DNA of 28,247 bases, from positions 1-28,247 of IMG/VR virus record IMGVR_UViG_3300038552_000058; one strand, written 5' to 3'. Of this stretch, positions 2,460-10,865 are shown piece by piece. Numbering within the stretch: position 1 is the stretch's first letter; each line of letters opens with the position of its first letter. Made by a program: the position numbers and the translations under genes. The stretch comes from a virus. The notes beneath the pieces were generated by a model, which saw only the letters and a program-made list of their open reading frames with translations, had not been told where the DNA came from and searched no databases.

Positions 2460-2756
2460 TCAGCCCCTCCCCCGTTCCTTGACAGGCGGCCTCTCCCTGA
2501 AGTTCCTCAGGATCGCCTTCACCGTCTCCCCCTGCCCGATCCGCTGGACCACCCCGAGGTCGAGCCCCTCCTTCAGCATGAGGTGTAGGAGCCTGAGCGC
2601 CACCACAACGATCTCTAGCTGGTCCGCCATCTCCTTGGGCGTCCCATCAGGCAAGGTCGCGCCTGGGGCCGGGCCTAGGGCGGCTCGTGCCTCCTGGAGG
2701 GCGGCGTAGTCCCCCTTTGGTAAGGGGGGTAGGTGGAAAGAAAGGGGTCTGGGCAT
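2460..2756 (-). CDS. Small hypothetical protein, first gene left of the divergent region
   Basis: 98 residues from ATG 2756. The ribosome site is weak and no better start is visible. The N-terminal 40 residues are Pro/Ala-rich and probably flexible. From about residue 43 (MADQLEIVVVALRLLHLML) the protein becomes a helical, hydrophobic domain ending in a basic tail. No family recognised. It lies 58 bases from the divergent plus-strand TTG start at 2814, so the two share an upstream region. The stop is followed by the AT-rich patch with the TATAAT box. Confidence 0.5.
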   Translation of the reverse strand: MPRPLSFHLPPLPKGDYAALQEARAALGPAPGATLPDGTPKEMADQLEIVVVALRLLHLMLKEGLDLGVVQRIGQGETVKAILRNFRERPPVKERGRG

Positions 2757-2788
2757 CTCACTCAGGGAACGCCGGGCTCCCTCCCCAC

Positions 2789-2796
2789 GTTCCTAG
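2789..2796 (+). repeat. GTTCCTAG intergenic element, copy 1
   Basis: First copy of an eight-base element that also occurs, exactly or with one change, at 5495-5502, 6787-6794, 7818-7825 and 10865-10872. Each copy lies in or starts a real gap of the plus-strand operon and is followed by an AGGAGG-type ribosome site (AGGAGG or AGGAGGT). The copies at 6787 and 7818 extend to 13 identical bases including the preceding C. Confidence 0.55.
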
Positions 2797-2813
2797 CACA
2801 GGAGGACCCACCG

Positions 2814-3224
2814 TTGAAGATATACATATCCGCCAGTTTCGTGGCTCAGAAACGCCTCCGACCCATTCGTGACGCTCTCTGGGCCATGGGGCACGTGGTC
2901 ACCTCCTCCTGGCTGGACGAGACCGAGATGCCCGCGGGGATGTCCCGGGAAGCCTTCATGCGAAAGCTGGGGGTCAAGGACGTGGCGGAAATCCACGACG
3001 CGGACCTCCTCATCAACGATCTGGCCGAGCCCTCCACCTCGGGGGGCCGGGACATCGAACTCGGGGTGGCCATCGGTCGCCATCAGCGGTGCCAAGTCTG
3101 GATCGTAGGGACCCCTCGCTCCCCCTTCCACTTCCTCGCAGATCGGGAGTTCTCGAACTGGGATGAGGCTCTCACGGCAGCCAAGGAACTGATCCACTCG
3201 CAAGCCAAGGAGGCCAAGGAATGA
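2814..3224 (+). CDS. Nucleoside 2-deoxyribosyltransferase-like protein
   Basis: 136 residues from TTG 2814, chosen for the AGGAGG 8 bases upstream and because the family begins at the KIYISASF strand. The order fits the NDT-like/DUF4406 Rossmann-type fold: KIYISASF (2-9), GHVVTSSWL (26-34), DVAEIHDADLLIND (56-69), GGRDIELGVAIG (about 77-88) with the conserved acidic residue of the active-site loop, then QVWIVG. Family members move or cleave the N-glycosidic bond of deoxynucleosides. Adjacent MazG and DUF5664 genes point to management of the nucleotide pool. It opens the long plus-strand operon; the next gene overlaps by ATGA. Fold assignment is fairly firm, exact substrate unknown. Confidence 0.7.
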   Translation: MKIYISASFVAQKRLRPIRDALWAMGHVVTSSWLDETEMPAGMSREAFMRKLGVKDVAEIHDADLLINDLAEPSTSGGRDIELGVAIGRHQRCQVWIVGTPRSPFHFLADREFSNWDEALTAAKELIHSQAKEAKE

Positions 3225-3541
3225 GAATGGCTCACCTCTTCACCAAGCCCGTCCACACCCCCGAGTTCGCCACCCACCACGAGATTCACCTTCGGGAGGA
3301 GGAGGCGATGGCTCTCACCCGGGAACTCATCGAACTACTCGGGTTCCGCACGAACGACGACCTTCCCTATCTCACCGGGAGGTTCCCCACGCTCACCAAG
3401 ATCATGGACCTCTTGGGTGACCGCAACAGCCGCGGTCCCAAGCGCGAGGTCGAGCCGATTACCCTCTACTCCTACCCGACCAAGCGGCAGCGGGAGGAGG
3501 CACAAGACCGGAAGGCTTTCTTCAAGGAGACCTCCTACTGA
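3221..3541 (+). CDS. Hypothetical protein in the nucleotide-metabolism operon
   Basis: 106 residues; ATG 3221 overlaps the preceding stop, with GGAGG about 10 bases upstream. It is largely hydrophilic: an N-terminal His-rich stretch (HTPEFATHHEIHLREEEA), a helical middle, then a short C-terminal region rich in Arg/Lys/Glu. No Cys and no membrane segment. Its end overlaps the MazG start by one base (TGATG), so it is probably co-translated with MazG. No family recognised. Confidence 0.6.
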   Translation: MRMAHLFTKPVHTPEFATHHEIHLREEEAMALTRELIELLGFRTNDDLPYLTGRFPTLTKIMDLLGDRNSRGPKREVEPITLYSYPTKRQREEAQDRKAFFKETSY

Positions 3542-3897
3542 TGCGGACCGAGGACTACGAGAAGTTCGTGGAGTCGGTGGATATGTACACCCAGGATCGT
3601 GGGGACGCCCCCTACGCCCTCGGGCTCGCCGGAGAGGCGGGCGAGGTGGCCGACATGGTGAAGAAGGCCCTCCGCGAGAAGGGCTTCGCCAAGCCCATCG
3701 TGGGGGACCGGGAACACCAGTTCATCCTCGAACTCGGGGACGTGCTCTGGTATCTCACCCGGCTGGCGGCCCGGCACGGTCACACGCTCTCTCAGGTGAT
3801 GGACCTCAACGTGGACAAGCTGGTGACCCGCTATCAGCGGACCCCTGAAGGGAGGGCACTCCTGGCGGGGAAGCTGATCGAGGAGATGACCTCGTGA
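3541..3897 (+). CDS. mazG-like: MazG-like nucleotide pyrophosphohydrolase
   Basis: 118 residues, about the length of a single MazG domain. The signature ExxE...ExxD is present: E32-A-G-E35 in LAGEAGEVADMVKKAL, and E64-L-G-D67 in LELGDVLWYL; these acidic residues bind Mg in the family. MazG proteins hydrolyse NTPs or dNTPs to NMP plus pyrophosphate. Phage copies are thought to adjust nucleotide pools or alarmones. It is coupled at both ends (TGATG upstream, GTGA downstream) to a DUF5664-like gene. Family call firm, substrate unknown. Confidence 0.85.
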   Translation: MRTEDYEKFVESVDMYTQDRGDAPYALGLAGEAGEVADMVKKALREKGFAKPIVGDREHQFILELGDVLWYLTRLAARHGHTLSQVMDLNVDKLVTRYQRTPEGRALLAGKLIEEMTS

Positions 3898-5520: not shown

Positions 5521-5910
5521 ATGTGCATGTTGACCCACGACCGGGCGCTCCAAACCAAGAGGACGGTTTCCAAGGACAAGCCCATCCTGGCCTTCAAGCA
5601 ATTTCACGTCAAGGTGGTGGAGGGGAAGGTGCGTTACACTCCCATCTCGTCGAACAACTATCCTGAGGGGGGATGGGTACGAAACATCCCCTACACAGCG
5701 CACTCGGTCCCGACCACCCGGAATACCTACGTCGGGTTCCACGCGATCAAGCGTCCGACGCTCAGGATGTTCCGTACTGAGCTCTGCGTCTGTCTCCCCG
5801 TGAAGTTGTGGGGGAGGATCGTGGAGCATCGGGGGACCACGCACAGGAGCTACCCGTATCGTCCGTTTTGCCCCGCGGGCTACCGGGCTCAGTTCATGGA
5901 GATTCTCTGA
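5521..5910 (+). CDS. Conserved-looking phage protein of unknown function
   Basis: 129 residues, ATG 10 bases after AGGAGG. It starts with MCML and has a beta-rich body: FHVKVVEGKVRYTPIS, GWVRNIPYTAHSV, VGFHAIKR, VCLPVKLWGRIVEHRG and a C-terminal GYRAQFMEI. The arrangement (MCxL start, GFHA, then VKLWG and GYRA near the end) resembles a family of phage hypothetical proteins seen in many tailed phages, but I cannot name it. Its TGA overlaps the start of the Sak4-like gene (TGATG). A role in recombination is suggested only by position. Confidence 0.65.
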   Translation: MCMLTHDRALQTKRTVSKDKPILAFKQFHVKVVEGKVRYTPISSNNYPEGGWVRNIPYTAHSVPTTRNTYVGFHAIKRPTLRMFRTELCVCLPVKLWGRIVEHRGTTHRSYPYRPFCPAGYRAQFMEIL

Positions 5911-6794
5911 TGCCCCTGGTCCCTCGTACCGCCTCCTCGGCCAAGGCCCCAGGCTCCTCCACCCTCATCTCCGGGGCTCCCCTGACCTTCAAGACCACTT
6001 CCTCCCTCTCCTGGCCACACGAGCCGGGGATGATCCACGTCTCGCTCCCGGGCGAGAAGGGCTGGGAGACGGTCCCGCTCAAGGACACGACACCCGAGAT
6101 CACACCCGCGGGGGGCATCTACCAGCTTCTCTGGGAGGAGGCCGATGTCGAACGTACCTCTCCCCATGCTCTCCTCAAGCTGATCGACCAGGGCGTGAAG
6201 GATGCGGTCGCCGCGGCGCTGAAGAACTGGAAGGACTCTCGCCGCTGGACCCTCGTGCTGGAGGGGCTCCACAAGTTGTATGGCTGGCACTACAAGGCCC
6301 GGTTCCTCGACCTTCAGGCTGGCTCCGGCTACCAGAAGGACCCGGACGACGACAAGATTTCCGGGCGAGCCTATGCCATGGCCCACGACTCCTACCAGGG
6401 CTGGCTCCACGAGATCATGTCGCTCCCCATCCCCTACGTCCTGGGCACGATCTGGGAGGGCAAGACGAAGGACGACCCGGGGAATACGGCCAAGAATGCC
6501 CCCACGCATATCTTCCCCGATCTTCCCGGTGAGATGGCCAAGCGGATTGTGGGGGAGTTCACCATCGTCCTCTACTCCGAGGTGAGTATGCCGGACCCTC
6601 GGGGCCGCCAGCGTGGCAAGTGGACCGTGAAGCCTCAGGGCAAGATTTGGGGCGTAGGAGTCCATCTTCCCCCGGAGATCGCGGCCAAGGTCCCGGCGAC
6701 CATCGAGCCCCCGCCGAACGAGTGGCGGGCCTGCCGGTTCTCTGACCTGGAGCCTCACCTGACGGAATTGCAGGCGGCTCTCAAGCGTTCCTAG
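5910..6794 (+). CDS. Sak4-like RecA-fold recombination ATPase with degenerate Walker motifs
   Basis: 294 residues from ATG 5910 (TGATG with the previous gene). N-terminal SGAPLTFKTTSSLSW corresponds to a P-loop in which the usual Gly before Lys is Phe (G22...F27-K28-T29). The Walker-B-like strand WTLVLEGLHKLY has Glu where Asp is usual. Later segments (HDSYQGWLHEIMSLPIPYVLGTIW, quoted in part: GWLHEIMSLPIPYVLG; then LPGEMAKRIVGEF) follow the AAA_24/Sak4 order. Sak4 proteins support strand annealing with an SSB, and the gene sits between a Cas4-like nuclease and a candidate SSB. The two altered motifs raise doubt about ATP hydrolysis. The gene ends in CGTTCCTAG. Confidence 0.6.
   Translation: MPLVPRTASSAKAPGSSTLISGAPLTFKTTSSLSWPHEPGMIHVSLPGEKGWETVPLKDTTPEITPAGGIYQLLWEEADVERTSPHALLKLIDQGVKDAVAAALKNWKDSRRWTLVLEGLHKLYGWHYKARFLDLQAGSGYQKDPDDDKISGRAYAMAHDSYQGWLHEIMSLPIPYVLGTIWEGKTKDDPGNTAKNAPTHIFPDLPGEMAKRIVGEFTIVLYSEVSMPDPRGRQRGKWTVKPQGKIWGVGVHLPPEIAAKVPATIEPPPNEWRACRFSDLEPHLTELQAALKRS
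6787..6794 (+). repeat. GTTCCTAG intergenic element, copy 3
   Basis: Exact copy; its TAG is the stop of the Sak4-like gene. With flanks, CGTTCCTAGTGTG is identical to the copy at 7817-7829. AGGAGG follows about 30 bases later, upstream of ATG 6832. Confidence 0.55.
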
Positions 6795-6831: not shown

Positions 6832-7383
6832 ATGAGCGACGAACTCAACATGGATGAGATGTGGGAAGGCGGAATCGACCAGGACGAACTGAAGAGAGGG
6901 GCCGCCGACCTTCTCCTGCCGGTGGCCACGTACACGACGGTCCCGGCGCTGACCCTCACCTTCAACGAAGAGCCCGGCAAGTTCGACGGGCGACCCGCTG
7001 GCTCCGTGGCCCGCTACTTCGGCCAGATCGAGCGCCACGCCAACGAGAAGGACGTGGAGAAGGGACTGGCGACCAAGGAGGGCGAGATCATCGGCCGGGG
7101 TGCCATCGGCTTCGGTATCTCCCCGCTCCGGGTCAACTCCAAGGACCGTGACGGCAAGGACACCGGGAGGCCGGATCGGGCGTTCCGCCTCTGGATGAAC
7201 GCGGTCGCCGCGTACAAGATCGCCTATGGGGCCGAGCCCCAGGCGAAGAGTGACGTGCTCAACTTCGTGCGGGACTACCCCGTGCGAATCCGCGTGGGCC
7301 AGTACGGGGTCCCCACGGAGAACAACCCGGAGCCGGACATCGACCCGGGTAACAACGTCCTGGCCATCTCCGCGGTGAAGTAG
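6832..7383 (+). CDS. Candidate ssDNA-binding protein (by context)
   Basis: 183 residues with a strong AGGAGG 6 bases before ATG. The acidic N-terminus (MSDELNMDEMWEGG) is followed by a beta-rich body: YTTVPALTLTFNEEPGKF, VARYFGQIE, GAIGFGISPLRVNSKD, DVLNFVRDYPVRIRVGQYG and an acidic end before VLAISAVK. It has no enzymatic motif. A beta-rich, acidic-ended protein directly after a Sak4-like ATPase is the usual place for a phage SSB. Its own gap, strong ribosome site and a 13-bp stem-loop after the stop suggest high expression. The SSB role is inference; no OB-fold signature is certain. Confidence 0.5.
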   Translation: MSDELNMDEMWEGGIDQDELKRGAADLLLPVATYTTVPALTLTFNEEPGKFDGRPAGSVARYFGQIERHANEKDVEKGLATKEGEIIGRGAIGFGISPLRVNSKDRDGKDTGRPDRAFRLWMNAVAAYKIAYGAEPQAKSDVLNFVRDYPVRIRVGQYGVPTENNPEPDIDPGNNVLAISAVK

Positions 7384-8295: not shown

Positions 8296-9738
8296 GTGCT
8301 TCCCAAGCCTGACACATGCCGGGGCTGTCCCTTTTACGGGGATGGCCTCGGCTTCTGTCCCGATGAGCGCCACCCCGGGTCCGAGGTCGAGGTCATGGGC
8401 CAGAATCCGGGCGCAAACGAGGTCAAGGGGATGAAGCTGATCCAACGCTACCCCGAGCGGTGGGAGTCTCACCGCCCCGCCCCGTTCCTCGGCAAGACTG
8501 GGTACGCAATGGAGCACGACTTCTTCCCGGTCGCGGGGCTGGAGCGTGGGAAGGTGGACCTGACGAACTCGGTGCGTTGTCGTCTAAACGACCAGGACTC
8601 ACTCCCGGACGTGGCGATTCCTCGGATGCGTGAGGCCATCGAGCACTGCCGGGTCCACGATCAGCGCCCGGCCAACATCAAACTCATCGTTGCGGAGGGG
8701 GAACATGCCCTATACGCCACTACAGGAGAGGATGGGACGGATTCTCCCGGCTTTAAGATCAGTCGTGGAATCTCGGGCTGGCGAGGATGGCTACTGCCTC
8801 ACAATCCACCTCCACTTCCGAAACGGGTCTTTAATCAAATTTACGAACCATCAAGGGGAGAATTGTCCGTGCTCCCCACCTACCATGTTGCGTACCTCTT
8901 CCGTAACCCGTGGGAAAAGCCGAACGCCCGCGCCGACTGGCACAAGGTCCAGCGCATCCTCCGCGGGACGTGGCCCGAGTCCTTCCCGCACGTCGAACGG
9001 ATCGCGCCGACCGTCTGGCCGGGGCTCTCAGCCTACGACACGGAGTTCTACCAGACGGACGAAGAGTACGCAGCCCCGACGCGCCTCATTCGATGGTCAC
9101 TCGCAACACGGTCCCCAGTCGGGGTGCCCCGTGTGTGGGTAGTCGAGGCAGGCTACCAGGACTTCATCAAGACCCCGCCATCGCCACGGGTCTACTTCTG
9201 GAACGTGGAGGCCGACATCGACCACCTGAAAGACCTTCTCGGTCAGGAGGTAAAGATCGACATTGAAGATGCGATGTTCATTCACGCGATTCTTTGGCCT
9301 GATCTCGGCCATAAACTCGACGAGGCTGGAAGCGTCTACGCCCGAACAAACCGCTGGAAGCATCTCGTGCATTCCAACCCTACGATCTACGCTGGGGGTG
9401 ATGCTCTCGGTACGCTCGACGTGGCACTCTCGCTCACGCGAGAACTAGAGCGGGACCCGCGGTCGAAGTGGGTGTACGAGCACCTCACGCTCCCGCTCGT
9501 ACCCATCATCAACAAGGGGCACAAGATTGGGAGTCGGGTCCACCAGGGGCGCGTGCTCCAGGCTCTCGGGGAACTCGACGTGATCCAGGCGAGTCTCACG
9601 GAGCAAGCGCGGGCCTACACGGGCTACCCCATCAACCTGGGCTCCTCCGATCAGGTGGCTCAGTGGCTCTACGACGTGGAGCAGGTACATTTGAATCCTG
9701 TGACGGGTCGTAGCAGAATCCGCCGCGGGAAATACTGA
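8296..9738 (+). CDS. UDG-like domain + 3'-5' exonuclease + thumb start of a split family-A DNA polymerase
   Basis: 480 residues, GTG start, weak ribosome site. Residues 1-225 resemble a family-4 uracil-DNA glycosylase: C8, C11, C95 and C118 in the Fe-S positions, GQNPG (35-39) in place of GEAPG, TNSVRC, and TYHVAYLFRNP (H197). Residues 240-385 form a DnaQ-type proofreading domain with all motifs: D248-T-E250, N303-x3-D307, Y365-x3-D369. Residues 395-465 are the polymerase thumb, ending with YPINLGSSDQVAQWL, the counterpart of FNINSPKQL. The stop TGA overlaps the next ATG by one base, and the rest of the polymerase continues there. This is a broken gene or an evolved two-subunit enzyme. Confidence 0.85.
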   Translation: MLPKPDTCRGCPFYGDGLGFCPDERHPGSEVEVMGQNPGANEVKGMKLIQRYPERWESHRPAPFLGKTGYAMEHDFFPVAGLERGKVDLTNSVRCRLNDQDSLPDVAIPRMREAIEHCRVHDQRPANIKLIVAEGEHALYATTGEDGTDSPGFKISRGISGWRGWLLPHNPPPLPKRVFNQIYEPSRGELSVLPTYHVAYLFRNPWEKPNARADWHKVQRILRGTWPESFPHVERIAPTVWPGLSAYDTEFYQTDEEYAAPTRLIRWSLATRSPVGVPRVWVVEAGYQDFIKTPPSPRVYFWNVEADIDHLKDLLGQEVKIDIEDAMFIHAILWPDLGHKLDEAGSVYARTNRWKHLVHSNPTIYAGGDALGTLDVALSLTRELERDPRSKWVYEHLTLPLVPIINKGHKIGSRVHQGRVLQALGELDVIQASLTEQARAYTGYPINLGSSDQVAQWLYDVEQVHLNPVTGRSRIRRGKY

Positions 9739-10865
9739 TGCCCAAGCCCAAGCGTTCTGCCCGCTCCGTAGATTCGGACGTGCTCCGGCAGTTGAAGGAC
9801 CTGGGAGCCGAGTCCGTCTTGCTCGATCTCCGTCTGGAGTACATGGAGCTAGAGGGCATCGCCCGCTACCTCCGCAAGCTGGTGGGGCGCGAGCGAGTCC
9901 ATCCGCACATGCTCCCGACCCAAGCCTCTGGACGCTGGAGCACCACGAGTCCCCCGCTCGTCAACTTTCCGGCCCACGCGGAGGACGACTGTGACCGCTG
10001 CCAAGACCTCAAGGCTCGGGGAGAGCCGCTCCCTCACTGGTGCCCGCGAGCGGTGCGGGAGGTGATCCTGCCTGACGAGGGATGGTACTTCGTCCACTAT
10101 GACTTGAATGCTATCGAGGGCCGATTCGGTGCCGCCGATGCCCACGATGAGGAGGAGCTAGATGCCTACCGGAAGAACGAAGATGTCCACACAGTTCTCG
10201 GAGCCGCCCCTATGTTTGGGATGCCTGCTCCACCGATCCGCACGAAGGGGCTCCACACGGCGAGCGATCCCGCTTCAGTGGCATGGCGTGAGGCTTGGAT
10301 TCCCCCATGGAGCGGATCGGAAGATCGTCGCCGACATCTTGCTAAGACTCTCAAGTACGCTACCCTCTACGGGAAGGACCACCGGGGGGCCGCGACGGCG
10401 AAGGGGGTAGAGAAGCTGAGGCTCACGAAGGCTGAGGTCGAGCGGTTCGCCAAGGTGTATCTGAAGGTCCGGTCCGTCCTCACCGCCCACAAGGCTCGAC
10501 GCTTCGAGGAATACGCCCGGACCAACGTGAGCTACACGTTTCGGGGGCGGCGTCGTCGGCTCTTCGGGGATGCCTGGACCCGGGCCAAGGAAGGGTGGTC
10601 CCATCGGTTGCAGGGAGCGGTCCCTGACATCATGAACGACTACATCATCCAGGTGGCTAACGCCTTCCCCGAGGGCTACATCGTCTTGAACTCCCACGAC
10701 GGGCTCACCTGGGCCATGCCGGGGACCCGGGAGCAGGCCCTCCAGACCGTGCAAACGATGAAGAGGATTGTGGAGCGAGACTGGGATTACGAGGGGGTTT
10801 CCCTCCCCGTAGCGGCCGACTGGGAGATAATCTACCCGGACGGAACGAAAGAGAAGGTCAAGTAG
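9738..10865 (+). CDS. Family-A DNA polymerase, C-terminal polymerase part
   Basis: 375 residues starting at TGATG with no good ribosome site, so translation probably depends on the upstream gene. Polymerase motifs follow in order: TQASGRWSTTSPPLVNFP (61-78), motif A VHYDLNAIEGRF with D122, motif B R199-x3-K203-x7-Y211-G, and motif C NSHDGLTW with H320-D321. Motif C has Gly where Glu is usual. Tyr207 occupies the E. coli position 762. Between NFPAH and motif A there is an insertion with C85-x2-C88, H100 and C102. All catalytic Asp/Lys/Arg residues are present, so it should be active when joined to, or paired with, the first part. Confidence 0.9.
   Translation: MPKPKRSARSVDSDVLRQLKDLGAESVLLDLRLEYMELEGIARYLRKLVGRERVHPHMLPTQASGRWSTTSPPLVNFPAHAEDDCDRCQDLKARGEPLPHWCPRAVREVILPDEGWYFVHYDLNAIEGRFGAADAHDEEELDAYRKNEDVHTVLGAAPMFGMPAPPIRTKGLHTASDPASVAWREAWIPPWSGSEDRRRHLAKTLKYATLYGKDHRGAATAKGVEKLRLTKAEVERFAKVYLKVRSVLTAHKARRFEEYARTNVSYTFRGRRRRLFGDAWTRAKEGWSHRLQGAVPDIMNDYIIQVANAFPEGYIVLNSHDGLTWAMPGTREQALQTVQTMKRIVERDWDYEGVSLPVAADWEIIYPDGTKEKVK

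What the first reader, a model, noticed from the sequence alone, without database searches (positions are those of the whole stretch)
8296..10865. DNA polymerase split inside the thumb at a TGATG junction, with UDG and exonuclease on the first part
The first ORF holds a family-4-like uracil-DNA glycosylase, a full proofreading exonuclease and the polymerase thumb up to the SPKQL-like motif. It stops (TGA) where the second ORF starts (ATG, sharing one base), and the second ORF resumes just before the usual STD-like motif and carries motifs A, B and C. The join lies at a natural, surface-exposed spot. The second ORF has no good ribosome site, which fits termination-reinitiation or -1 frameshifting. 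All catalytic residues remain, so this looks like a working two-part enzyme or a programmed fusion, not decay. No canonical slippery heptamer is present at the junction.
Basis: partly seen in the sequence, partly recalled or inferred. Interest (0 to 1): 0.8.

Follow-up and report, generated by a model that had tools for sequence, protein, structure and literature searches.

The report
Phage DNA polymerase in two genes
A lineage of uncultivated phages encodes its DNA-copying enzyme as two separate genes, cut through the part that grips DNA, and the same cut in twelve distant viruses shows that it is an old, maintained design and not a broken gene.

Summary
ORF1 (8296-9738) is a family-4-like UDG domain, a 3'-5' exonuclease and the first thumb helices. 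ORF2 (9738-10865) is the rest of the thumb, the palm and the fingers of a family A polymerase. They overlap by one base (TGATG).

The split is not private to this contig. Eleven further viral genomes, at about 27-41% protein identity to the window, break the same enzyme between the SPKQL-like and STSEEVL-like thumb motifs. The C gene lies in all three frames relative to the N gene. Spacing runs from -1 to +791 nt, with up to three small unrelated ORFs between the halves. Each genome has one N half, one C half and no second family A polymerase found. Both halves are under purifying selection, with all exonuclease residues and most polymerase residues kept. Decay, sequencing error and frameshift fusion are excluded as general explanations, and no intron was found where tested.

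Best reading: a two-chain family A polymerase whose halves reassemble at the thumb tip; assembly itself is inferred. Split phage family A polymerases are known (MEP401), but that one breaks just before motif A.

New detail: the UDG domain's catalytic Glu is an invariant Gln, so it may read uracil and not cut it.

The parts
8296..9738 (+). N-half gene (GTG start, TGA stop, 480 aa): UDG domain + 3'-5' exonuclease + first part of thumb
8299..8970 (+). family-4-like UDG domain (residues 2-225) with invariant C8, C11, C95, C118, N91, H197; motif-A Gln36 (8401-8403) where family 4 has catalytic Glu
   Evidence: Z 20.3 to 1ui0, 172 aligned, 29% id; direct alignment GQNPGANE / GEAPGENE; columns
8977..9450 (+). 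DEDDy proofreading exonuclease (D248/E250, N303-D307, Y365-D369 all kept in 12 genomes)
   Evidence: PF01612 in 5 of 12 relatives
9457..9678 (+). first thumb helices up to the SPKQL-like motif (NLGSSDQVAQWLY); profile aligns to E. coli Pol I about residues 494-598
9736..9740 (+). TGATG stop-start overlap; break maps to thumb tip, between the SPKQL-like motif and the STSEEVL-like motif
   Evidence: same junction in L023
9738..10865 (+). C-half gene (375 aa): rest of thumb, palm, fingers of family A DNA polymerase
   Evidence: PF00476 74.4 bits; Z ~20 to Taq/Bst Pol I
10101..10118 (+). polymerase motif A, D122 and E127 (YDLNAIE)
   Evidence: invariant in 12 genomes
10332..10370 (+). motif B / O helix R199, K203, Tyr207 (position 762 of E. 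coli Pol I), Y211
10695..10703 (+). motif C His320-Asp321-Gly322 (HDG; the second acid is absent in all 12)

Best explanation
This is a lineage-wide two-gene, two-chain family A DNA polymerase. The N gene encodes a UDG-like domain, the proofreading exonuclease and the first thumb helices. The C gene encodes the thumb's second half, the palm and the fingers. Each is translated on its own; in this window the C gene, which lacks a good ribosome site, is most likely coupled through the TGATG stop-start overlap. Because the break falls inside the thumb tip and not between domains, neither chain has a complete thumb. The likely working form is therefore a non-covalent N-C complex rebuilding a Klenow-like enzyme with a fused UDG module. 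Shown: conserved two-gene layout, break position, domain content, catalytic residues, purifying selection, no other family A polymerase found. Inferred: the heterodimer, its replicative role, and coupled translation.
For: Twelve distinct viral genomes are all split at the same point. Spacing is -1 to +791 nt, frames are 0, 1 and 2, and the intervening small ORFs are unrelated to each other. Each genome holds exactly one N half, one C half and no second family A polymerase. Catalytic residues are kept. dN/dS is about 0.07-0.27 for both halves. The C-half fold matches Taq 597-832 and the N half matches the UDG, exonuclease and thumb start. C-half residues 1-100 alone are predicted with low confidence, as expected for a thumb lacking its partner. 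Fused outgroups (Manatee phage, vir526, ctfzr933) suggest the ancestral state; the split set is one side of a branch in the best tree. Near-identical L006/L007 come from two IMG/VR records.
Against: No protein, complex or activity has been observed. AlphaFold was run on single chains only, so the interface was not modelled. Support for a single origin of the split is weak (68/55), because the fused Manatee sequence has a long branch. All split members are metagenomic contigs.
Confidence: 0.83

Rival explanations
1. The two products are made separately but work apart: N is a repair or proofreading protein with UDG and exonuclease, and C is a stand-alone exonuclease-free polymerase.
For: Independent genes with varying spacing. 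The palm-fingers part is predicted well alone (pLDDT about 90). A separate exonuclease-subunit family is named in PHROGs (phrog_403).
Against: The break cuts through the thumb in all 12 genomes instead of between exonuclease and polymerase domains, so both parts carry thumb helices that make sense only together. The genes are always neighbours on the same strand, and the nearest relative is fused.
Confidence: 0.12
2. A programmed -1 frameshift makes some fused polymerase besides the two parts.
For: The C frame is -1 to the N frame in the window and L023, and in the window frame -1 is open from 9714.
Against: No slippery heptamer; the relative frame is 0 or +1 in other genomes; gaps of 136-791 nt with stops and, in most, other ORFs separate the halves in seven genomes.
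Confidence: 0.02
3. The gene is decaying, or a sequencing error split it.
For: At least one relative has a single intact gene.
Against: Same break in 12 genomes, dN/dS about 0.07-0.27 in both halves, catalytic residues kept, same TGATG in L023.
Confidence: 0.01
4. The break is an intron, or a split intein with trans-splicing, so that a continuous protein is made after all.
For: SPO1 carries a homing-endonuclease intron in its UDG-like polymerase, and a split polymerase B with an intein is reported in phage MIJ3 (PMC6892783).
Against: No intron family in Rfam matches the gaps tested (L027-L029) or the window. No intein domain in either half. No room for one where the genes overlap or touch. Intervening ORFs share no similarity.
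Confidence: 0.02

Closest known systems
Methylophilales phage MEP401/MEP402 split DNA polymerase (OP830906; PMC10580990)
   Different: It breaks just before motif A, after the thumb, about 195 alignment columns downstream of the break here. The N part starts at the exonuclease, with no UDG domain. The authors left open whether an intron is involved.
Manatee Spring phage polymerase (MW202572, 815 aa)
   Same: Same UDG-exonuclease-polymerase order, about 31% identity in both halves, the same LQNPG motif (Gln for Glu) and the shared TQASGRWS motif.
   Different: Single continuous gene, with a short continuous thumb-tip linker where the others break.
Bacillus phage SPO1 gp31
   Same: UDG-like domain fused in front of exonuclease and family A polymerase.
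   Different: Lacks the Fe-S cysteines, keeps a Glu in motif A (QENPF), and is interrupted by an annotated intron further downstream, before the palm.
Family 4 UDG (Thermus UDG, 1ui0) and UdgX
   Same: Fold (Z 18-20), four Fe-S cysteines, motif N91, motif-B histidine.
   Different: Motif A is xQ(N/A/S)PG, not GE(A/G)PG; no KRRIH loop seen on reading, so not UdgX.
vir526 (Methanomicrobiales virus) and ctfzr933 polymerases
   Same: Fused UDG-exonuclease-polymerase proteins that branch next below the Manatee-plus-split clade.
   Different: Single genes with canonical GEAPG UDG motif.

Membership tests
Family A DNA polymerase (PF00476) | Sequence profile match above the curated cut-off | tested here: met
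   74.4 bits against 34.3 for the window; all 12 C halves match at E <= 0.01
Family A DNA polymerase (PF00476) | Motifs A (D, E), B (R, K, F/Y, Y) and C (HD) with the Klenow palm-fingers fold | tested here: met
   D122, E127, R199, K203, Y207, Y211, H320, D321; Z ~20 to Taq/Bst Pol I
Family A DNA polymerase (PF00476) | Second acid in motif C (E883 of E. coli Pol I) | tested here: not met
   Gly or Ser in all 12. Other phage enzymes of the family also lack it (HDS in ctfzr933 and TJE1, HDQ in vir526), so it is not treated as defining and does not exclude membership
Family A DNA polymerase (PF00476) | Polymerase activity | not testable with these tools
   needs purified protein
DEDDy 3'-5' exonuclease | DxE, N-x3-D and Y-x3-D motifs | tested here: met
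   invariant in 12 genomes
Family 4 UDG | UDG fold and four Fe-S cysteines | tested here: met
   Z 20.3 to 1ui0; C8, C11, C95, C118 invariant
Family 4 UDG | Motif A GE(A/G)PG with catalytic Glu | tested here: not met
   Gln in all 12. It is called family-4-like, not a family 4 UDG
Family 4 UDG | Motif B HPS | tested here: inconclusive
   His kept; Pro replaced by V/I/L and Ser by Ala
MEP401-type split family A polymerase | Break just before motif A | tested here: not met
   break lies upstream, inside the thumb
Two-subunit polymerase (heterodimer) | Two chains bind each other and act together | not testable with these tools

The most novel reading that the evidence does not exclude
An obligate two-chain family A replicase in which the UDG domain no longer cuts uracil (Glu to Gln) but reads it, so that the polymerase can sense uracil in the template, with the exonuclease-UDG chain able to exchange on and off the polymerase chain.
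Probability: 0.25. Interest if true: 0.85.

Novelty: new variant of a known kind. Interest (0 to 1): 0.63.

Why it matters
Family A polymerases are normally single-chain enzymes. A natural, long-maintained cut through the thumb would be a ready-made split polymerase. It would show that the thumb tip tolerates a chain break, that proofreading can be supplied by a separate subunit, and possibly that uracil sensing can ride on that subunit. It also warns annotators against calling such genes broken or spliced.

Tried and rejected
Frameshift fusion, sequencing error, decay, intron and intein were each tested and rejected (see rivals). Single-protein scans with the window's halves found nothing; only alignments reached relatives. 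Two scans of bacterial and archaeal genomes found no relative, so the host is unknown. Human-faecal 'phage' hits were bacterial-type PolA genes and were used only as outgroup. An SSB-like role for the upstream gene 6832-7383 could not be shown. dUTPase, ThyX and MazG are not shared by the lineage, so they give no support for a uracil-DNA lifestyle. A hoped-for statistical demonstration of one origin of the split failed (68/55).

Full report
Observation. ORF1 ends in TGA at 9736-9738 and ORF2 starts with ATG at 9738. Pfam finds UDG in ORF1 (just under its cut-off) and family A polymerase in ORF2; PHROG 17 (phage DNA polymerase) matches ORF1 up to model position 912 and ORF2 from 959. The window is a 28,247-base IMG/VR virus record.

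Relatives. Single-sequence scans failed. A tblastn of annotated phages found one fused relative, the Manatee Spring phage polymerase of 815 aa, about 31% identical to both halves. Aligning the two opened the viral collection: brought eleven further distinct viral genomes (L007, L008, L009, L010, L013, L015, L016, L023, L027, L028, L029; L006/L007 and L023/L024 are near-identical pairs of records). Every one of them encodes the enzyme in two genes.

Where the break lies. A joint alignment puts all twelve breaks between the SPKQL-like motif and the STSEEVL-like motif. Profiles of the two halves against solved structures place the N half up to about residue 598 of E. coli Pol I and let the C half resume shortly after, which is the tip of the thumb. 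The split polymerase of phage MEP401 breaks elsewhere, just before motif A (PMC10580990).

Two genes, not one shifted gene. Relative frame is 0 in one genome, +1 in five and +2 in six. Spacing is -1 (window, L023), 2, 4, 17, 136, 143, 199, 492, 541, 565 and 791 nt. Up to three small ORFs lie between, with no detectable similarity to each other. Rfam finds no intron in the window or in L027-L029. The C genes of L008, L009, L015, L023 and L029 have a good ribosome site, while the window's is weak. L023 repeats the TGATG junction.

Not decay. The exonuclease triads and the polymerase motif A acids are kept in all twelve, as are the motif B Arg, Lys and final Tyr. Exceptions are small: His replaces the O-helix aromatic in L027-L029, and motif C is HDG or HDS. 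dN/dS of closer pairs is 0.07-0.27 in both halves, though dS is often near saturation. Each genome has one N half, one C half and no other family A polymerase, although several records may be incomplete.

Structure. ORF2 alone: mean pLDDT 77.6, about 90 over palm and fingers, about 50 over its thumb part. It matches Taq and Bst Pol I at Z about 20. ORF1: mean pLDDT 82.2; UDG part Z 20.3 to Thermus UDG, exonuclease part Z about 15-16. A model of both chains together could not be made here.

Evolution. In trees with fused outgroups the split genomes fall on one side of a branch, with the fused Manatee sequence next to them, but support is only 66-68%. The wider clade of Manatee plus split members is well supported (100/99). 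The fused outgroups vir526 and ctfzr933 have the canonical UDG motif GEAPG; Manatee and all split members have Gln in place of that Glu. The Glu-to-Gln change thus appears to predate the split. In UdgX this Glu is needed for full activity, and it is described as activating the water molecule used in family 4 UDGs (PMC10359453); whether Gln abolishes activity in this context is not known.

Mechanism. The simplest account is that the two chains fold apart and meet at the thumb to rebuild a Klenow-like enzyme carrying a UDG module. That the break is inside the thumb, not between domains, is the main argument that they act together. Assembly, activity and the role of the UDG domain are inferences.

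Novelty. UDG-exonuclease-polymerase fusions are known (SPO1 gp31, here by sequence inspection), and split family A polymerases are known (MEP401). A conserved split through the thumb of a UDG-bearing enzyme was not found in the papers searched; the held library is partial. I rate it a new variant of a known kind.

Noticed in passing
window 8401-8403 and the same column in L007-L029 and MW202572: The catalytic Glu of family-4 UDG motif A is an invariant Gln in this clade, while Fe-S cysteines, N91 and H197 are kept in all 12; the UDG domain may bind without cutting.
   Followed up: partly
L027:9012-10094, L028:9268-10350, L029:6350-7453: His occupies the O-helix position that is Phe or Tyr (762 in E. 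coli Pol I) in the other members, an unusual residue at a site linked to nucleotide selection.
   Followed up: no
L009:6053-7255, L010:6995-8167, L013, L015, L016 C halves: This sub-clade has an insertion of roughly 30-50 residues right after the O-helix motif (YGGQYFYV...), and a Cys/His-rich stretch (CINPxCP...HEKTxxCW) before motif A that looks like a small zinc site; a similar Cys/His stretch is in L027-L029, and the window has CDRC...HWC there.
   Followed up: no
window 3541-3897 and 2733-3224: A MazG pyrophosphohydrolase and a nucleoside deoxyribosyltransferase-like gene upstream; MazG was not found in the other 11 split genomes.
   Followed up: partly
window 5808-6794: Weak AAA_24 match (below cut-off), possibly a Sak4-like recombination ATPase near the polymerase.
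   Followed up: no
gaps between the halves in L007, L009, L016, L027-L029: Unrelated small ORFs of 47-102 aa occupy the gap, one of them a likely single-span membrane protein (L016:6858-7001).
   Followed up: partly
MT835881, MT835753, MT839172, MT839648 (human faecal 'Bacteriophage sp.'): These deposited phage scaffolds carry full bacterial-type PolA genes, some with bacterial-looking neighbours, and look like bacterial contigs.
   Followed up: no
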